The position numbers were made by a program, and so were the translations under genes. The notes under the pieces are model-generated. The model worked only from the letters and a program-made list of their open reading frames with translations. It was not told where the DNA came from and ran no database searches. From Corallococcus macrosporus DSM 14697 (GTDB lineage: Bacteria; Myxococcota; Myxococcia; Myxococcales; Myxococcaceae), in the NCBI RefSeq assembly GCF_002305895.1, contig NZ_CP022203.1:8404001-8468000 (forward strand): 64,000 nucleotides of DNA. The letters run 5' to 3'. Of the stretch, positions 12,680-18,923 are shown piece by piece (the first letter of the stretch is position 1; every line of letters begins with the position of its first letter).

Positions 12680-12779
12680 CGAGGCGCTCCCGTCGGTCAT
12701 CTCGTGGAGTGGGCTGTCGATGGGCACCTCCGGCCCGCCGTGCCTCGACCGGTGCACACCGCGGTAGTACCTTGCCGGC

Positions 12780-13142
12780 ATGCTGGTCATCCGACCCTCG
12801 CAGATGCATGCCTTCCAGGGGGCAGCCGAAACAGGGCTCCTGGAGGCCTTCGCGGAGCGGGTGCGCGAATTCTGGCCGCACTCGGCCCAGGCGCTGGGCC
12901 CCGAGCGGCTCCGGACACGCATCCAGGCCGCCGTCGCGCTCGCCCGGCGCCACGGCATCCACGCCCGGACGGACGTGCTCAGGGTGGTCAACGCGGCCAT
13001 GGCGCTCGATGACGACTTCACGCCAGCGCCCCGGCTCGACTGGGTCGTCCCCCTCCTGGAGAACGCCTCGCTCCATCCCTCCGACCGGGTGGCGAGGCTG
13101 TCCTCCCGCGTCCTCGAACATCTGCAAGGCGTCGAGCCATGA
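12780..13142 (+). CDS. Small helical protein, possibly associated with a contractile secretion system
   Basis: 120 residues: MLVIRPSQMHAFQGAAETGL, then a helix with FAERVREFWPHSAQAL, RIQAAVALARRHGIHARTDV and a C-terminal helical hairpin. The I-R-x-x-Q-M opening and the R-H-G-I-x-x-x-x-D-V block resemble small proteins often encoded next to type VI VgrG/effector genes in delta-proteobacteria; this is a recollection of pattern, not a search result. The stop overlaps the next start as ATGA. No signal peptide. Confidence 0.7.
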   Translation: MLVIRPSQMHAFQGAAETGLLEAFAERVREFWPHSAQALGPERLRTRIQAAVALARRHGIHARTDVLRVVNAAMALDDDFTPAPRLDWVVPLLENASLHPSDRVARLSSRVLEHLQGVEP

Positions 13143-13663
13143 GCCTCCTCGATGACCTGGCGCGGCGCGGGCCGGTGGCCAACCCCTTCTCGCCGGCGCC
13201 TCCCCGCGGCAGTCCTCCCCCCAGGGATGACCCGGAGGAGTCCTTCACGCGCATGGAGTCCGCGCTCGACACGGAGCTGGAGGTCCAGGAGGTCGAGTCC
13301 GCCATTCTCCCCTGTGAGTCCCCCTGGCTCGACCTGAGCCTGACGGACCCGGAGGGCAGCCCCGCCGCGGGCATGCCCTACACGCTCACCGCCCCGGGGC
13401 TCGGCACGTTGACGGGGACCCTGGACGACCAGGGTCGTGCCCACTTCGAGAACCGGGAGCTGGGAGCGGGCCCGTGGAACGTCGAAACCGAGGTCCACTA
13501 CGACGACGAGGGCGCGCCCACCCGCTATGACCTCACCCTGGTCCGCGCGCCCTCCGAACAGGCGCCCGCGTCCTCGCCCCCGCCAGGCGACCAGGCCCCG
13601 CTCTCGCTGACGCGCTTCGAGTTCTCCCCGCCCAACCTCGATGAGCGAGACCGCGGTCAGTAG
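13139..13663 (+). CDS. Beta-sandwich (carboxypeptidase-regulatory-like) domain protein
   Basis: 174 residues. Residues 60-120 form one small beta-sandwich unit: WLDLSLTDPEGSPAAGMPYT, LTGTLDDQGRAHFENRELGA. This is the pattern of the immunoglobulin-like extensions found at type VI VgrG tips and in surface proteins. The N-terminal 55 residues are disordered and acidic; the C-terminal 40 are Pro-rich. Coupled to the upstream 120-residue gene by ATGA. It ends convergently with the nuclease/propeller gene, overlapping it by seven bases. A structural or adaptor role is inferred. Confidence 0.7.
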   Translation: MSLLDDLARRGPVANPFSPAPPRGSPPPRDDPEESFTRMESALDTELEVQEVESAILPCESPWLDLSLTDPEGSPAAGMPYTLTAPGLGTLTGTLDDQGRAHFENRELGAGPWNVETEVHYDDEGAPTRYDLTLVRAPSEQAPASSPPPGDQAPLSLTRFEFSPPNLDERDRGQ

Positions 13664-16383
13664 GTGAAGTCCGCCGTCACCGGGAGGTGGTCGCTGATGC
13701 CGCTGGTCTTCCCGAGCCGGATCTTCAAGAAGATGGACTTGGAGTTGAAGACGTTATCGGCGATTGGATCCGTAGGACCCAAGCCCTTCGTAAAGCGGTA
13801 GTCCGCCAGGACGCCTGCCACCAGGTCGATGACGTGGGCATTGGCAGCCGCCACGTGCCCCTTGGCGATGATGTTGTCGTAGGCGTGCTCCCGGTATTGG
13901 TCCCAGACCGCCCGCCCCTTCTTGAGGCTCGAGCGGACGGCGGACTGGACGAGCGTCATGCTGACCGGAGCGTTCGTGAAGCTCTGGAGGACGCCACGGT
14001 CGAGCGAATGACCATCCGCGTCGTCATTGGTGCACTCGGGAGCGGTGGTGGGGTTGGGCACGCCACACAGATTCAGGTCGCCCACATAGACAATCCGGGT
14101 CACGGGGTCGGTCCCATCGAACACGTCCTGGGTGAGCAGCTCGCTCACGCCATCGCGCGCCTTGCGGTTGAGATTCGTGCCGCCGTACGTGGGCGAGGGC
14201 GCGTGCTGCGCCACCAGATTGAACAGGTGCCCGCTGGAGAGGTCCTTGAACTGGACGAGGAAGGGACAGCTCTCGCGCTCATTGAGGATGCGCCAGTTCA
14301 AGGCACCGCCCAGGACATTCGTCAGCAGCTGGGGGTCGTAGCTGTCACCAGGCGCCACGCGGTGCGGACCGGGCATGCCCGCCTGCGCACCCGCGACCAG
14401 GACCTGCACGGCATCACCATCCCCGGTCGGAGTCCAGCGCAGCTCATTGCTGGCGGAGTCGACCCAGCTCACGAAGTCATGGTCATGGCCCACCGTGAGG
14501 CAGGTCGGCTGTCCCGCCGCGGCGGCCTCAACGAAGTCTTCGGGAGTCGAGCCATCGAGCTCCGCCTGACGGATGGTGTGGGTGGCGCCGTCGACCCAAT
14601 AGAGCTTGTCGGAGCGGTTGGAGACGGCGAGGCTCGTGGGCTGCCCCGCGTCGGCACTGGCCACGCACGTGGCCGCCACGTAGGTCGCGAGCGGCGCGGC
14701 TCGAAGCTCCTGGCGCGAAGCGTCCGCCCAGTAGAGGTCGGTGTCTGAAACCGCGAGCGCGACGGGCGCTCCCGCATCGGCCGCGCTCACGCGAAGGGTG
14801 GCGCCGGTGCCATCGAGCGCGGAGCTCCAGATGGCGCCCGTCATGCCGTCCACCCAGAACAGCCCGTTCGTGGAGTGCGCGCACACGGCGCCGCCTATCG
14901 CGGGCAGCGCGTCCGGGTGGCTCCCGTCCAGGTTCGCGTGCCGCACCGTGCGCGCCGTCCCCGCATCCACCCAGTAGAGCCGGGCGTTGTCCGTCCCAAG
15001 CCACCGGGGCTGGCCCGCGTCAGCGGCCGCGACACACAGCGCCTGGCCCGTTCCATCCGGGTTCGCCCGGTAGATGTCGTTGGCCGGGTTGACCCAGTAG
15101 AGCACCCCATTGCCCTCGTGCAGTCCCCGAGGCGCGCCGCCCACCGCGATGATGCTTCCAGGATGGCTCCCATCCAGGTTCGCGCGATGGATGTCGTTGC
15201 CGTCGTCCCAGTAGAGGCCGCTGGGCGCCACGAGCAGTCCGGCGGGCCCCCCCGCGGTCGCGACGACCGTCGCCGCGGTGCTGCTGCTCACGTCGTAGCC
15301 GCGAATCTCGCCGCTCGCGCCGTCCACCCAGTAGAGCATGTGCAGGTGCGCCCCCAGCGAGCGCGGGGTCCCCGCCACCGCCGTCAGCACCAGGTCCTGA
15401 ACGGTCATGCTGACGGTATCCAGGGCGCGGATGGACTGCGTCGCGGTGGCCACCCAGGCCAGGTTGCCGCCGATGACCGTGAGGTCCCTGGGCCCTCCTG
15501 CCCCCATGGCGGACACCACGTCCGTGACGTTCTGACCGTCCAGGTCCGCCCTCCGGATGCTCCCGCTGGCCCCCTCAATCCAGAAGAGCTGTCCGCCGGC
15601 CACGCGCAGGTCCACGGGCTGGCCGGCCGCGGCACCGGCCACACGCAAGGTGGAGGCGCCCGACGGAGCCGCGGTCGACCAGATGGCGTGCGTGCTCGCG
15701 TCGACCCAGTACACCTCGCCCACCCCCGGGGCCGGGACGCACTGGGACGGACTCCTCGCCGACAGGCAGGAGAGCACCTGCGTGACGTTGGCCCCGTCGA
15801 GGTCGCACCGGGAGAGGCCTTGCGCGCGGTGGTCCATCCAGTAGAGGTGCGGCGTGGCGGGCTCGATGCAGGAGGACTTGGGGTCGATGCCAAAGGAAGC
15901 CACCGCGCCTCGTCCCTGGTGGAGCTCGCCCTCCACCAACGAGTGCGGGAGGGTGGTCTGGTCCACCCAATGGAGCGTGCCCTCTCGGGCGGTGAGGGTC
16001 TCCCATTCATCGCCCCCTGGCACCCGCGTGTCCGGTCCCACGAAGGCCACGGTGCGCGAGTTGTAGAGCACGCAGACAGCCTCGCCCTTCCCCTTCCGCT
16101 GCTTGGCGTAGATGCAGAGGGGGGTGATGGCGCGCCAGAAGCGGCCGTTGTGGCGTGCCCGCAGCTTGGCGAGCAGTTGGACCGCGCCATCCGGCCCCGA
16201 GCCTTCCGCCACATCCCCCACGGGCGCGCGCTTGCAGACGGGCTCGATGATGACGAACACGTCGTAGGCGGGGTCGTTCCCGGCCGGATGAAGCAGCTCC
16301 AGGACCCGGGTCGTCTCCTCGGCCTTGCTCCAGAGGGATTTGGCGAAGTTGAAGATGTTCCAGCTCAGGATGCGCACGGGCAT
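13657..16383 (-). CDS. Endonuclease/exonuclease/phosphatase-fold protein with inserted YWTD-type beta-propeller
   Basis: 908 residues. Residues 1-125 are the N-terminal half of an EEP (DNase I-like) fold: RILSWNIFNFAKS with the metal-binding Asn, VFVIIEPV with the catalytic Glu, and GEAVCVLYNSRTVAF. Residues about 135-680 are 12-13 repeats of roughly 42 residues, each with an LYWVD-type strand and a following R-A-N-L-D-G turn, as in LDL-receptor YWTD propellers; this is enough for two six-bladed propellers. Residues 682-908 complete the EEP fold: VAQHAP (His), VYVGDLNLCG (GDLN), AYDNIIAKG and GISDHLPVTADF (SDH). All usual catalytic residues are present, so activity is plausible. No signal peptide. 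It follows the 544-residue gene after 33 bases and is probably in one operon with it. Confidence 0.9.
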   Translation of the reverse strand: MPVRILSWNIFNFAKSLWSKAEETTRVLELLHPAGNDPAYDVFVIIEPVCKRAPVGDVAEGSGPDGAVQLLAKLRARHNGRFWRAITPLCIYAKQRKGKGEAVCVLYNSRTVAFVGPDTRVPGGDEWETLTAREGTLHWVDQTTLPHSLVEGELHQGRGAVASFGIDPKSSCIEPATPHLYWMDHRAQGLSRCDLDGANVTQVLSCLSARSPSQCVPAPGVGEVYWVDASTHAIWSTAAPSGASTLRVAGAAAGQPVDLRVAGGQLFWIEGASGSIRRADLDGQNVTDVVSAMGAGGPRDLTVIGGNLAWVATATQSIRALDTVSMTVQDLVLTAVAGTPRSLGAHLHMLYWVDGASGEIRGYDVSSSTAATVVATAGGPAGLLVAPSGLYWDDGNDIHRANLDGSHPGSIIAVGGAPRGLHEGNGVLYWVNPANDIYRANPDGTGQALCVAAADAGQPRWLGTDNARLYWVDAGTARTVRHANLDGSHPDALPAIGGAVCAHSTNGLFWVDGMTGAIWSSALDGTGATLRVSAADAGAPVALAVSDTDLYWADASRQELRAAPLATYVAATCVASADAGQPTSLAVSNRSDKLYWVDGATHTIRQAELDGSTPEDFVEAAAAGQPTCLTVGHDHDFVSWVDSASNELRWTPTGDGDAVQVLVAGAQAGMPGPHRVAPGDSYDPQLLTNVLGGALNWRILNERESCPFLVQFKDLSSGHLFNLVAQHAPSPTYGGTNLNRKARDGVSELLTQDVFDGTDPVTRIVYVGDLNLCGVPNPTTAPECTNDDADGHSLDRGVLQSFTNAPVSMTLVQSAVRSSLKKGRAVWDQYREHAYDNIIAKGHVAAANAHVIDLVAGVLADYRFTKGLGPTDPIADNVFNSKSIFLKIRLGKTSGISDHLPVTADFTY

Positions 16384-16416
16384 TTCAGGCGGACTCCGGG
16401 TGCCGGGGACGGCGGC

Positions 16417-18051
16417 TCAAGATGACGACCAGACGAACTGCTGCCCCACGTCGTTGCTGGCGATGAACTTCCAGGTCCCCTCGTAGACATCCACGTTGAG
16501 CGAGAACCCCGAGGGAGGCTCCCGCCACCCGAAGGACTCGTGCCCGTGGAGCCTCAGCGCCTGGACGCAGTCCTCCAGGGAGACGGACTCGGAGACAGGC
16601 GTCAGCCGCAGCTCGCAGCGGGGCGCGCGGAAGCCTCCCTCGAACGCGACCCCGTCCAGCGTGGTCCGGGCGACGGTGGTGACTTTCAGGAACCGCGCCG
16701 CCGGGTCATGGGGCTGGCCGACGACGAACCGGAAGACGACGGGGCTCAGCAGGATGGGCGGCGCCTGCACCTCGAGCCCCTCCGAGAAGAGCGTCACCAC
16801 CACATCACTCACCGCCTGGGTCGGCAGGTCGATGCCGACGTGCAACTCCGCGAGCCGGAGGTTCACCGCCGCGTCCAGCACGGGCTTCAGCCTGGGGATG
16901 CGCTGCGTGGGCCGCAGTCCCCCGAACAGGACGGGCAGGCTGTCCACGCCAATGGGCGGCCACTGGCTGGCGGCCCCCGTGAAGTCATCCTTCTCATCGA
17001 GCGCGGGGGGCCACCCCGAATTCCAGCAGAGGACACCCGGGTCTGGAGGAAGGTCGGACCAGAGCGGCACCGCGTCGTCGTAGCGCGTGCCCAGGAACTG
17101 CGCGTGCGCGTAGCTGCCCAGCAGACGGGCCTCCGCCTCGCGGGCCCCCTCCTCATTGGGAGCGACCCGCACCTCCAGGTGGAGGTCGCGCAGGGTGATG
17201 TCCGGAAACGCGAGCGTGAAGGAAGGCGACGTGAGCCGGACGGCGTGCCTCCCGTGCAACTGCCCCTGGAGCACCAACGGCGTGCCGTGCCGCACCGCGC
17301 GCGACAGGTTCGGTCCGAAGCTGAAAGGGAAATAGACCCAGGAGCCGCTGTTGATGCCCATGGTCCCGGTGCTGGCCGGAAAGCTCGAAGAGGCGTGGAT
17401 GATGAGGGGCTTGCCGAAATGAAGGTGGCCGAGCCCCGTGTGATAGGCCTCCTGGAGCACCATCGAGTCGAAGGTCTGGCGTGAGCGCACGGTGATGAGG
17501 TGCTGCAGCTCGCCCTTCTCCGGCCAGAAGGACGCCTGCACCTCATCACCGTTCCGCAGTTGCCCGCGCACCGTCATCAAGCTCGTCAACTTGCTGTAGA
17601 ACGAGCGGTCGAGGACGACGCCCTCCTTCACCCCCTTGGAGCGCAAGCGGACGCGAAGGCCGTCTGCCCGGACATCCTCCTTCGCGAGCAGCGGGAGCAG
17701 GGGCTCGAAGTCCGCGTCCGGGTGACTGTCGGGGCTGAGCGCCCCCAGCACGATGGCGACCGACCCCAGCATCTTGCGCTGCTGCTTCACGTACCTGCCG
17801 GAGACGCGCTTGGGCTGGGACATGCTGCTCAACTTCATCCGGGAGAGCTGCAGGTAGGGCAGCTCCACCCGGGCGTTCTGGATGGCCAGGACCTCATCCC
17901 CGGTCAGCCGGAAGGCGATGTCACTGACGCCTGGCGCCAGGTCATCCGAGAGGGGAACGAAGCCGGACTTGCTTCGCTCCTGGTTGAGCGCGGTGAAGAG
18001 CCGGCGGATGAGCGTGGGCATATGTGTCAGTGCCTGGGAGAAACGCTTCAA
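16417..18051 (-). CDS. Large hypothetical protein upstream of the nuclease/propeller gene
   Basis: 544 residues starting MKRFSQALTHMPTLIRRLFT. The protein is beta-rich with frequent short strands and no signal peptide, membrane helix or recognised motif. Segments such as LHFGKPLIIHASSSFPAS and GTMGINSGSWVYFPFSF have the look of a secreted or structural beta domain. It precedes the EEP/propeller gene on the same strand with a 33-base gap. I do not recognise the family. Confidence 0.75.
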   Translation of the reverse strand: MKRFSQALTHMPTLIRRLFTALNQERSKSGFVPLSDDLAPGVSDIAFRLTGDEVLAIQNARVELPYLQLSRMKLSSMSQPKRVSGRYVKQQRKMLGSVAIVLGALSPDSHPDADFEPLLPLLAKEDVRADGLRVRLRSKGVKEGVVLDRSFYSKLTSLMTVRGQLRNGDEVQASFWPEKGELQHLITVRSRQTFDSMVLQEAYHTGLGHLHFGKPLIIHASSSFPASTGTMGINSGSWVYFPFSFGPNLSRAVRHGTPLVLQGQLHGRHAVRLTSPSFTLAFPDITLRDLHLEVRVAPNEEGAREAEARLLGSYAHAQFLGTRYDDAVPLWSDLPPDPGVLCWNSGWPPALDEKDDFTGAASQWPPIGVDSLPVLFGGLRPTQRIPRLKPVLDAAVNLRLAELHVGIDLPTQAVSDVVVTLFSEGLEVQAPPILLSPVVFRFVVGQPHDPAARFLKVTTVARTTLDGVAFEGGFRAPRCELRLTPVSESVSLEDCVQALRLHGHESFGWREPPSGFSLNVDVYEGTWKFIASNDVGQQFVWSSS

Positions 18052-18197
18052 TAGTCGACGATACGGAGGGGCCTGACAATCGAGGAGCGGGCGGCCTGGC
18101 GGGCTCTTGCGCCGATTTCACCTGAATCCCCGCTCTGCCGCGCGCCAGGGCCACGGCGCATCCTTGGGCTCCATCTGCTTCCACCCGAGGTCCCGTC

Positions 18198-18923
18198 ATG
18201 ACGCATGAACACTCCGCCCACCACCACGTCCCGGTGGGCTTTGGCGCCGACCGCGCGCCCCACTACGACGCCCAGGCCTCCCTCAACCTCGCGGGCGCGC
18301 CGGCCATCTACGAGCTCGGCACCAGCGCCCTCACGGCCCGGCTCGACGGGCAGGACGCGGCGTCACTGCTGTTCGTGGGCGTGGGCACGGGCGCGGAGCT
18401 GGTGCCCTACAACCGCTTCGGCGTGCCGGGCTGGCGCTTCACGGGCGTGGAGCCCTCGGAGCCCATGCTCGCCGTCGCCCGCAAGCGGCTGGAGGACGAA
18501 GGGCTCCTCTCGCGCACCCACCTGCACCACGGCGAGCTGCGCACCCTGCCCGCCAGCGCCCCGTTCGACGGCGCGCAGCTCATGGGCGTCCTCCACCACG
18601 TCGAGGGAGAGGAGGCGCGACTGGAGCTGCTGCGGGAGGTGACACGGCGCCTCAAGCCGGGGGCGCCGCTCGTCCTGGGGTGCCGCGTCGGCATCGACCC
18701 CGTGCTGACGGACATCGAGTTCCACCGGCTGAAGGCCCTGGGCGTCTCCGCGGAGGCGCTGGAGCGGCGGCGCCAGATGCTCCCCACGCTGAAGCCCATC
18801 CCGTCCGACGCCGCGCTGTTCGACATGTTCGCGCGCGCGAACCTGGTGGAGCCCCGCACCCTCTTCATCTCACTCCACTTCAAGGTCTTCCTGGCGCGCT
18901 ACCAGCCTGACTCTCGAGGATGA
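18198..18923 (+). CDS. SAM-dependent methyltransferase
   Basis: 241 residues. The His-rich start MTHEHSAHHHVPVGFG is followed by motif I LLFVGVGTGAELVPYNRFG, GVEPSEPMLAVARKRLE (motif II), APFDGAQLMGVLHHVEG (motif IV) and RLKPGAPLVLGCRVG. This is a standard class I small-molecule methyltransferase layout; substrate unknown. It is divergent from the 544-residue gene and ends at a strong hairpin facing map. Confidence 0.85.
   Translation: MTHEHSAHHHVPVGFGADRAPHYDAQASLNLAGAPAIYELGTSALTARLDGQDAASLLFVGVGTGAELVPYNRFGVPGWRFTGVEPSEPMLAVARKRLEDEGLLSRTHLHHGELRTLPASAPFDGAQLMGVLHHVEGEEARLELLREVTRRLKPGAPLVLGCRVGIDPVLTDIEFHRLKALGVSAEALERRRQMLPTLKPIPSDAALFDMFARANLVEPRTLFISLHFKVFLARYQPDSRG

What the first reader, a model, noticed from the sequence alone, without database searches (positions are those of the whole stretch)
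13657..16383. DNase I-like fold interrupted by a two-propeller-sized YWTD insertion
All EEP catalytic motifs are present but split: Asn and Glu motifs at residues 1-50, His, GDLN and SDH motifs after residue 720. Between them are 12-13 LYWVD repeats. Insertion of so large a propeller into a catalytic domain, not fused at an end, is to my knowledge very unusual. The propeller could position or gate the nuclease on a receptor or substrate.
Basis: partly seen in the sequence, partly recalled or inferred. Interest (0 to 1): 0.75.

Follow-up and report, generated by a model that had tools for sequence, protein, structure and literature searches.

The report
Nuclease interrupted by exchangeable repeat domains
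A predatory soil bacterium carries a DNase I-type enzyme, probably a weapon fired by its type VI secretion harpoon, whose catalytic domain is split by a large double beta-propeller; relatives have no insert, a smaller propeller, or a chain of Ig domains one loop away, so this toxin varies in its middle rather than at its ends.

Summary
The gene is on the MINUS strand (13657-16383, 908 aa). It is an EEP (DNase I-type) domain with all catalytic residues (N9, E47, H727, D769, N771, D898, H899), split by about 555 aa holding 13 YWTD/LDLR-B repeats. Natural homologues show one domain plus an insert: three Pseudomonas proteins (324-328 aa; two compared directly, 53-55% identical) and a Thermoanaerobaculia protein (364 aa) lack it. 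Twelve other members were found: four uninterrupted, four same-genus members with 7 or 13 repeats at the same loop, four with Ig (He_PIG-type) domains at the next loop. Propeller carriers are not one clade (C-half AU p about 1e-6), so the insert was gained or lost at least twice. Every member follows an undescribed ~535-aa partner gene. Seven loci lie beside DUF4123 (T6SS adaptor family), one also beside VgrG and DUF4280; all 8 host genomes tested have T6SS core genes. Best reading: T6SS-cargo nuclease with exchangeable loop inserts. AlphaFold was too poor (pLDDT 49) to show geometry; activity, substrate, secretion and the insert's role are untested.

The parts
13657..16383 (-). split-EEP gene, 908 aa
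   Evidence: ORF, GC3 0.88, homologues of matching length
16033..16383 (-). EEP N-half, residues 1-117: SWN (N9), IIEP (E47)
   Evidence: aligned with uninterrupted homologues
14329..16032 (-). slot-1 insert, residues about 118-685
   Evidence: absent from Pseudomonas and Thermoanaerobaculia homologues
14458..15975 (-). 13 YWTD/LDLR class B repeats, residues 137-642
   Evidence: motif spacing 38-44 aa; Ldl_recept_b 8.7e-18; LRP4/LRP2 propellers
13660..14328 (-). EEP C-half, residues 686-908: H727, GDLN (D769, N771), D836, SDH (D898, H899)
   Evidence: C-half profile aligns with DNase I R111, H134, D168, N170, D212, D251, H252; invariant in 12 rows
16417..18051 (-). gene A, constant partner directly upstream; likely start at 18021 (MPTLIRRLF..., 534 aa)
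   Evidence: present only beside split-EEP genes, 7 of 7 in 193 genomes; no family match; alignment A8
13139..13663 (+). convergent Ig-like/carboxypeptidase-regulatory-like small gene, 174 aa; overlaps the EEP gene's end by 7 bp
   Evidence: homologues at the same place in most loci; weak Big_1/CarboxypepD_reg in L034 and L035 homologues
12780..13142 (+). 120-aa 'MLVI' gene, just before the Ig-like gene
   Evidence: homologues in L050, L054, L088, L090; fused to DUF4123 in L053

Best explanation
The gene encodes a cytoplasmically made nuclease-type cargo of the type VI secretion system. Its catalytic module is one DNase I-like EEP domain. A double YWTD propeller of 13 repeats leaves it from the surface loop that precedes the strand starting at DNase I Arg111, next to the DNA-facing edge. 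The propeller does not create the active site, because natural homologues without it keep every catalytic residue. It is an accessory module in one of two loop slots that can hold a propeller, an Ig chain or nothing. Proposed working order: gene A binds the nuclease and keeps it silent or loads it; adaptor proteins (DUF4123, the MLVI protein, the Ig-like protein) dock it on a VgrG/PAAR tip; after injection the EEP domain cuts nucleic acid in the target cell; and the insert sets binding (target, substrate or carrier) or limits access to the active site. Shown: the split domain, the catalytic residues, the insert-free relatives, the two slots, repeated gain or loss, the partner gene, and T6SS genes in the hosts. 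Inferred: delivery, nucleic acid as substrate, gene A's role and the insert's role.
For: All catalytic residues are invariant in 12 rows. The C-half profile's best solved match is DNase I, collinear at R111, H134, D168/N170, D212 and D251/H252 (weak, E 0.007). PF03372 passes its cut-off in the insert-free homologue L090 (24.9 vs 24.5 bits) and covers L054 over its full length. Insert-free homologues are 53-55% identical over the EEP parts. DUF4123 (PF13503) lies beside gene A/EEP in L032-L034, L053, L054, L055 and L090 (by sequence likeness). It is the only DUF4123 in three genomes. VgrG (TIGR03361, 626 bits) and DUF4280 lie on the L053 contig. VipB is in 8 of 8 host genomes. Gene A and split EEP co-occur 7 of 7 in 193 genomes. 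No signal peptide is visible: the first EEP strand starts at residue 3.
Against: In the window itself no DUF4123, VgrG or PAAR lies nearby; the genome's only DUF4123 is 3.3 Mb away. No known T6SS delivery domain (MIX, FIX, PAAR, Rhs) was found in the protein. No immunity protein is shown. The window protein itself gives no PF03372 hit, and the AlphaFold model is poor, so an assembled active site is not demonstrated. EEP also includes lipid and sugar phosphatases, so the substrate is open.
Confidence: 0.68

Rival explanations
1. The EEP domain is a T6SS cargo but acts on phospholipid or phosphoinositide rather than nucleic acid; the insert helps bind membranes or glycans.
For: EEP enzymes include sphingomyelinases and inositol phosphatases (established knowledge). 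YWTD propellers and Ig domains are usually binding modules. T6SS lipases also use DUF4123 adaptors: L054's DUF4123 protein weakly resembles the Tle1 chaperone Tla1.
Against: Weak but consistent best matches are to nucleases: DNase I, DNase gamma, exodeoxyribonucleases, MnuA, ExeM/NucH.
Confidence: 0.15
2. The protein is not exported; EEP plus gene A are an intracellular toxin-antitoxin or defence pair, and the T6SS neighbours are coincidental.
For: The window locus has no DUF4123/VgrG nearby. Gene A is an invariant operon partner, as an antitoxin would be. The module lies in a strain-variable interval.
Against: Repeated adjacency to DUF4123 in three phyla (Myxococcota, Pseudomonadota, Acidobacteriota) and to VgrG/DUF4280 in one. 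No PADLOC or PHROG match.
Confidence: 0.12
3. The propeller insertion is a degenerating accident and the protein is inactive.
For: Low-confidence fold; long branch of the window C-half.
Against: Full-length ORF, all catalytic residues kept, high GC3 as in coding sequence, and five proteins in five species keep propellers of two sizes.
Confidence: 0.05

Closest known systems
DNase I / EEP superfamily (PF03372)
   Same: Order and identity of all catalytic motifs; C-half collinear with DNase I
   Different: About 555 aa inserted at the loop before DNase I R111. No such architecture appeared in the searched papers, though that library is incomplete
YWTD / LDLR class B propellers (LRP4, LRP6, nidogen)
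   Same: Repeat motif and spacing; size of a tandem double propeller as in LRP6 E1E2
   Different: Bacterial, no signal peptide, no EGF modules, 7 or 13 repeats instead of 6 or 12, embedded inside an enzyme
DUF4123 (Tap/Tec)-linked T6SS effectors (review: PMC10433429)
   Same: Adaptor gene beside the cargo; VgrG/PAAR-like genes in one locus
   Different: Partner gene A of about 535 aa is undescribed; variation sits inside the catalytic domain rather than in a C-terminal toxin swap
MnuA-family membrane nucleases (NF045851)
   Same: Weak sequence match of both halves
   Different: Far below cut-off (22 vs 185 bits); no membrane anchor seen

Membership tests
EEP (DNase I-like) superfamily | Catalytic Asn, Glu, His, Asp-x-Asn, Asp-His in order | tested here: met
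   N9, E47, H727, D769/N771, D898/H899 invariant; C-half aligned with DNase I
EEP (DNase I-like) superfamily | Profile match over the domain | tested here: met
   Only through insert-free homologues: L090 24.9 bits vs cut-off 24.5, L054 full length just below it; the window protein itself gives no hit
EEP (DNase I-like) superfamily | One assembled alpha/beta sandwich | tested here: inconclusive
   AlphaFold mean pLDDT 49.4
EEP (DNase I-like) superfamily | Metal-dependent phosphodiester cleavage | not testable with these tools
   needs enzyme assay
YWTD propeller | LDLR-B repeats above curated cut-off | tested here: met
   65 bits vs 21
YWTD propeller | Six blades per propeller | tested here: inconclusive
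   13 repeats here, 7 in single-insert relatives (the 7th motif, LYWSN, read by eye); no usable model
T6SS effector | T6SS core genes in the host genome | tested here: met
   VipB in 8 of 8
T6SS effector | Genetic linkage to VgrG/PAAR or an effector adaptor | tested here: met
   For the family: DUF4123 at 7 of 13 loci, VgrG+DUF4280 at one. Not at the window locus itself
T6SS effector | Known delivery domain (MIX, FIX, PAAR, Rhs) in the protein | tested here: not met
   Only Ldl_recept_b found; cargo effectors need not have one, so this is not a required feature
T6SS effector | T6SS-dependent secretion and cognate immunity | not testable with these tools
   gene A is a candidate partner only

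The most novel reading that the evidence does not exclude
An injected nuclease family in which the catalytic domain is the constant chassis and the variable part is an exchangeable repeat domain (single or double YWTD propeller, or a chain of Ig domains) plugged into one of two loops flanking the same beta-strand. It would be a toxin polymorphic in its middle, the insert acting as a target reader or gate for the active site.
Probability: 0.35. Interest if true: 0.75.

Novelty: new variant of a known kind. Interest (0 to 1): 0.6.

Why it matters
Polymorphic toxins are usually understood as constant delivery parts with swapped C-terminal toxin domains. Here the toxin fold stays and an insert in its middle is swapped, present in several states among relatives, with natural insert-free homologues. 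That gives a ready natural series for asking how a folded enzyme tolerates roughly 165-555 inserted residues at a loop and whether such inserts gate or aim catalysis. It also exposes an undescribed partner family (gene A) tied to this nuclease.

Tried and rejected
AlphaFold on P0001 (7-row alignment) and on gene A: mean pLDDT 49.4 and 54.6, not usable for geometry. Foldseek of gene A: no match at E<=0.001. Foldseek of P0001 finds LRP propellers by local similarity only, with rmsd of 9 A or more. No relatives in viral contigs, plasmids or phages. No defence-library or PHROG match. The idea that the module sits beside the genome's own DUF4123 gene was rejected: that gene is 3.3 Mb away. One common origin of all propeller inserts was rejected for the C-half (AU p 1.1e-6) and is borderline for the N-half (p 0.0498). 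Literature searches for EEP-type T6SS effectors or propellers inserted in DNase I folds gave nothing relevant; the library is incomplete. The T6SS nuclease TseN (PMC12574953) was checked and is a different fold.

Full report
The thing itself. The finding's coordinates hold a single intact gene on the minus strand (window 16383 to 13657, ATG, 908 aa, GC3 0.88). Residues 3-9 form the first strand of an EEP domain with SWN (N9); E47 sits in IIEP. H727 (QHAP), D769/N771 (GDLN), D836 (HAYDN) and D898/H899 (SDHLP) follow after a stretch of about 555 residues. These residues are invariant in the 12-row alignment. Pfam recognises only the repeats (Ldl_recept_b, 65 bits, cut-off 21). Thirteen LYWVD-type motifs run from residue 137 to 642 at 38-44 aa spacing. 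The nearest solved relatives are the propellers of LRP4, LRP2 and LRP6.

Is it really one domain plus an insert? The AlphaFold model cannot say: with seven rows it reached mean pLDDT 49.4, and much of the insert and of the C-half is below 50. The decisive evidence is natural homologues. A scan of 85,000 species genomes found insert-free versions: Pseudomonas huaxiensis (326 aa), P. bharatica (328 aa) and a Thermoanaerobaculia MAG (364 aa). A further Pseudomonas has 324 aa. The first two are 53-55% identical to the window protein over the EEP parts. One of these insert-free proteins passes the PF03372 cut-off (24.9 vs 24.5 bits). A profile of the C-half finds DNase I as its best solved match (E 0.007, weak), but collinear from DNase I Arg111 through His134, Asp168/Asn170, Asp212 and Asp251/His252. 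So the insert sits in the loop just before DNase I Arg111. From memory, this loop is exposed and carries the Asn106 glycan in bovine DNase I, and Arg111 touches DNA.

Two slots, several inserts. In the window's own genus, 5 of 27 genomes carry the family and no other genome of 195 in the phylum does. The members are: window (13 repeats, insert 554 aa); L031 (13 repeats, 549 aa); L032, L033 and L034 (7 repeats, 305 aa); and two paralogues, L035 and L050. The paralogues and two Pseudomonas proteins (L088, L089) have slot 1 closed. Instead they carry Ig domains at the next loop, between the strand PYLxxF and the His strand (DNase I about 119-126): Pfam counts 4, 1, 3 and 3 He_PIG stretches, with a second, weaker Ig-like unit in L050 read by eye. 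Since slots 1 and 2 lie at opposite ends of the same strand, the propeller should leave near the active-site edge and the Ig chain at the far end. This is inference from DNase I topology, not shown.

History of the insert. To avoid joining flanks inside a possible effector gene, the two halves were treed separately. The C-half groups the window with the insert-free Pseudomonas proteins (100/99). Holding all propeller carriers together is rejected (AU p 1.1e-6), and holding all insert carriers together is rejected too (p 1.9e-4). The N-half agrees weakly (p 0.0498 and 0.033). The Ig carriers are one clade in both. Three to four changes of insert state are needed. Long branches are present, so the exact number is uncertain, and gain cannot be told from loss. 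The propellers of different clades are only about 25-35% identical.

Neighbourhood. Directly upstream in every locus is gene A (window 16417-18051). It has no family match and no usable fold match. In 193 genomes gene A appears seven times, always beside the split EEP. Convergent to it in the window are a 120-aa gene and a 174-aa Ig-like gene (12780-13663). The Ig-like gene recurs beside most members, and the 120-aa gene in several, including Pseudomonas. Next to gene A or these small genes lies a DUF4123 gene in L032-L034, L053-L055 and L090. It is the only DUF4123 of the genome in three cases. DUF4123 proteins are the Tap/Tec T6SS adaptors (PMC10433429). The Thermoanaerobaculia contig also has VgrG (TIGR03361, 626 bits) and DUF4280. 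VipB is present in all 8 host genomes. The window locus itself lacks DUF4123; adaptors would have to act in trans.

Genome setting. The four genes 12780-18051 fill the interval between a conserved DUF2917 gene (after the MocR-type regulator) and a methyltransferase gene (before the M24 peptidase). The MocR-type and M24 genes are kept in all 27 genomes of the genus, but the space between them varies from about 0.6 to 15 kb and holds other genes in the relatives read, including ones about 95% identical at the flanking proteins. The module is therefore accessory.

Mechanism and limits. The best reading is a T6SS-cargo nuclease whose insert modulates binding or access. Because insert-free homologues keep the same partner genes, the insert is unlikely to be the docking site for gene A or the adaptors; this favours a role toward target or substrate. 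No step of delivery, catalysis or immunity was tested. DNA as substrate rests on weak matches to nucleases only.

Noticed in passing
window 12680-18198: Strain-variable interval between MocR/DUF2917 and methyltransferase/M24 genes; the outer MocR and M24 genes are conserved in all 27 genomes of the genus, with 0.6-15 kb of different cargo between them.
   Followed up: partly
G000:C1:2165856-2166617 (L002): A second YWTD-like repeat protein (open frame 662 aa) in the same genome, matching only the repeats; similar matches in many genus members.
   Followed up: no
L090:4096-5001 and L051:5901-6437: Genes before DUF4123 end in copies of a TPFCEVCE / MPFCEECA-type motif, three copies in L090; possible small metal-binding or docking motif.
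   Followed up: no
L053:8098-9123: DUF4123 fused to a relative of the 120-aa 'MLVI' protein, linking that small family to T6SS adaptors.
   Followed up: partly
L031:7826-10540 (minus strand), protein residues about 431-595: Four nearly identical consecutive LYWVDRAVNxVWWADLDG repeats, suggesting recent blade duplication within the propeller.
   Followed up: no
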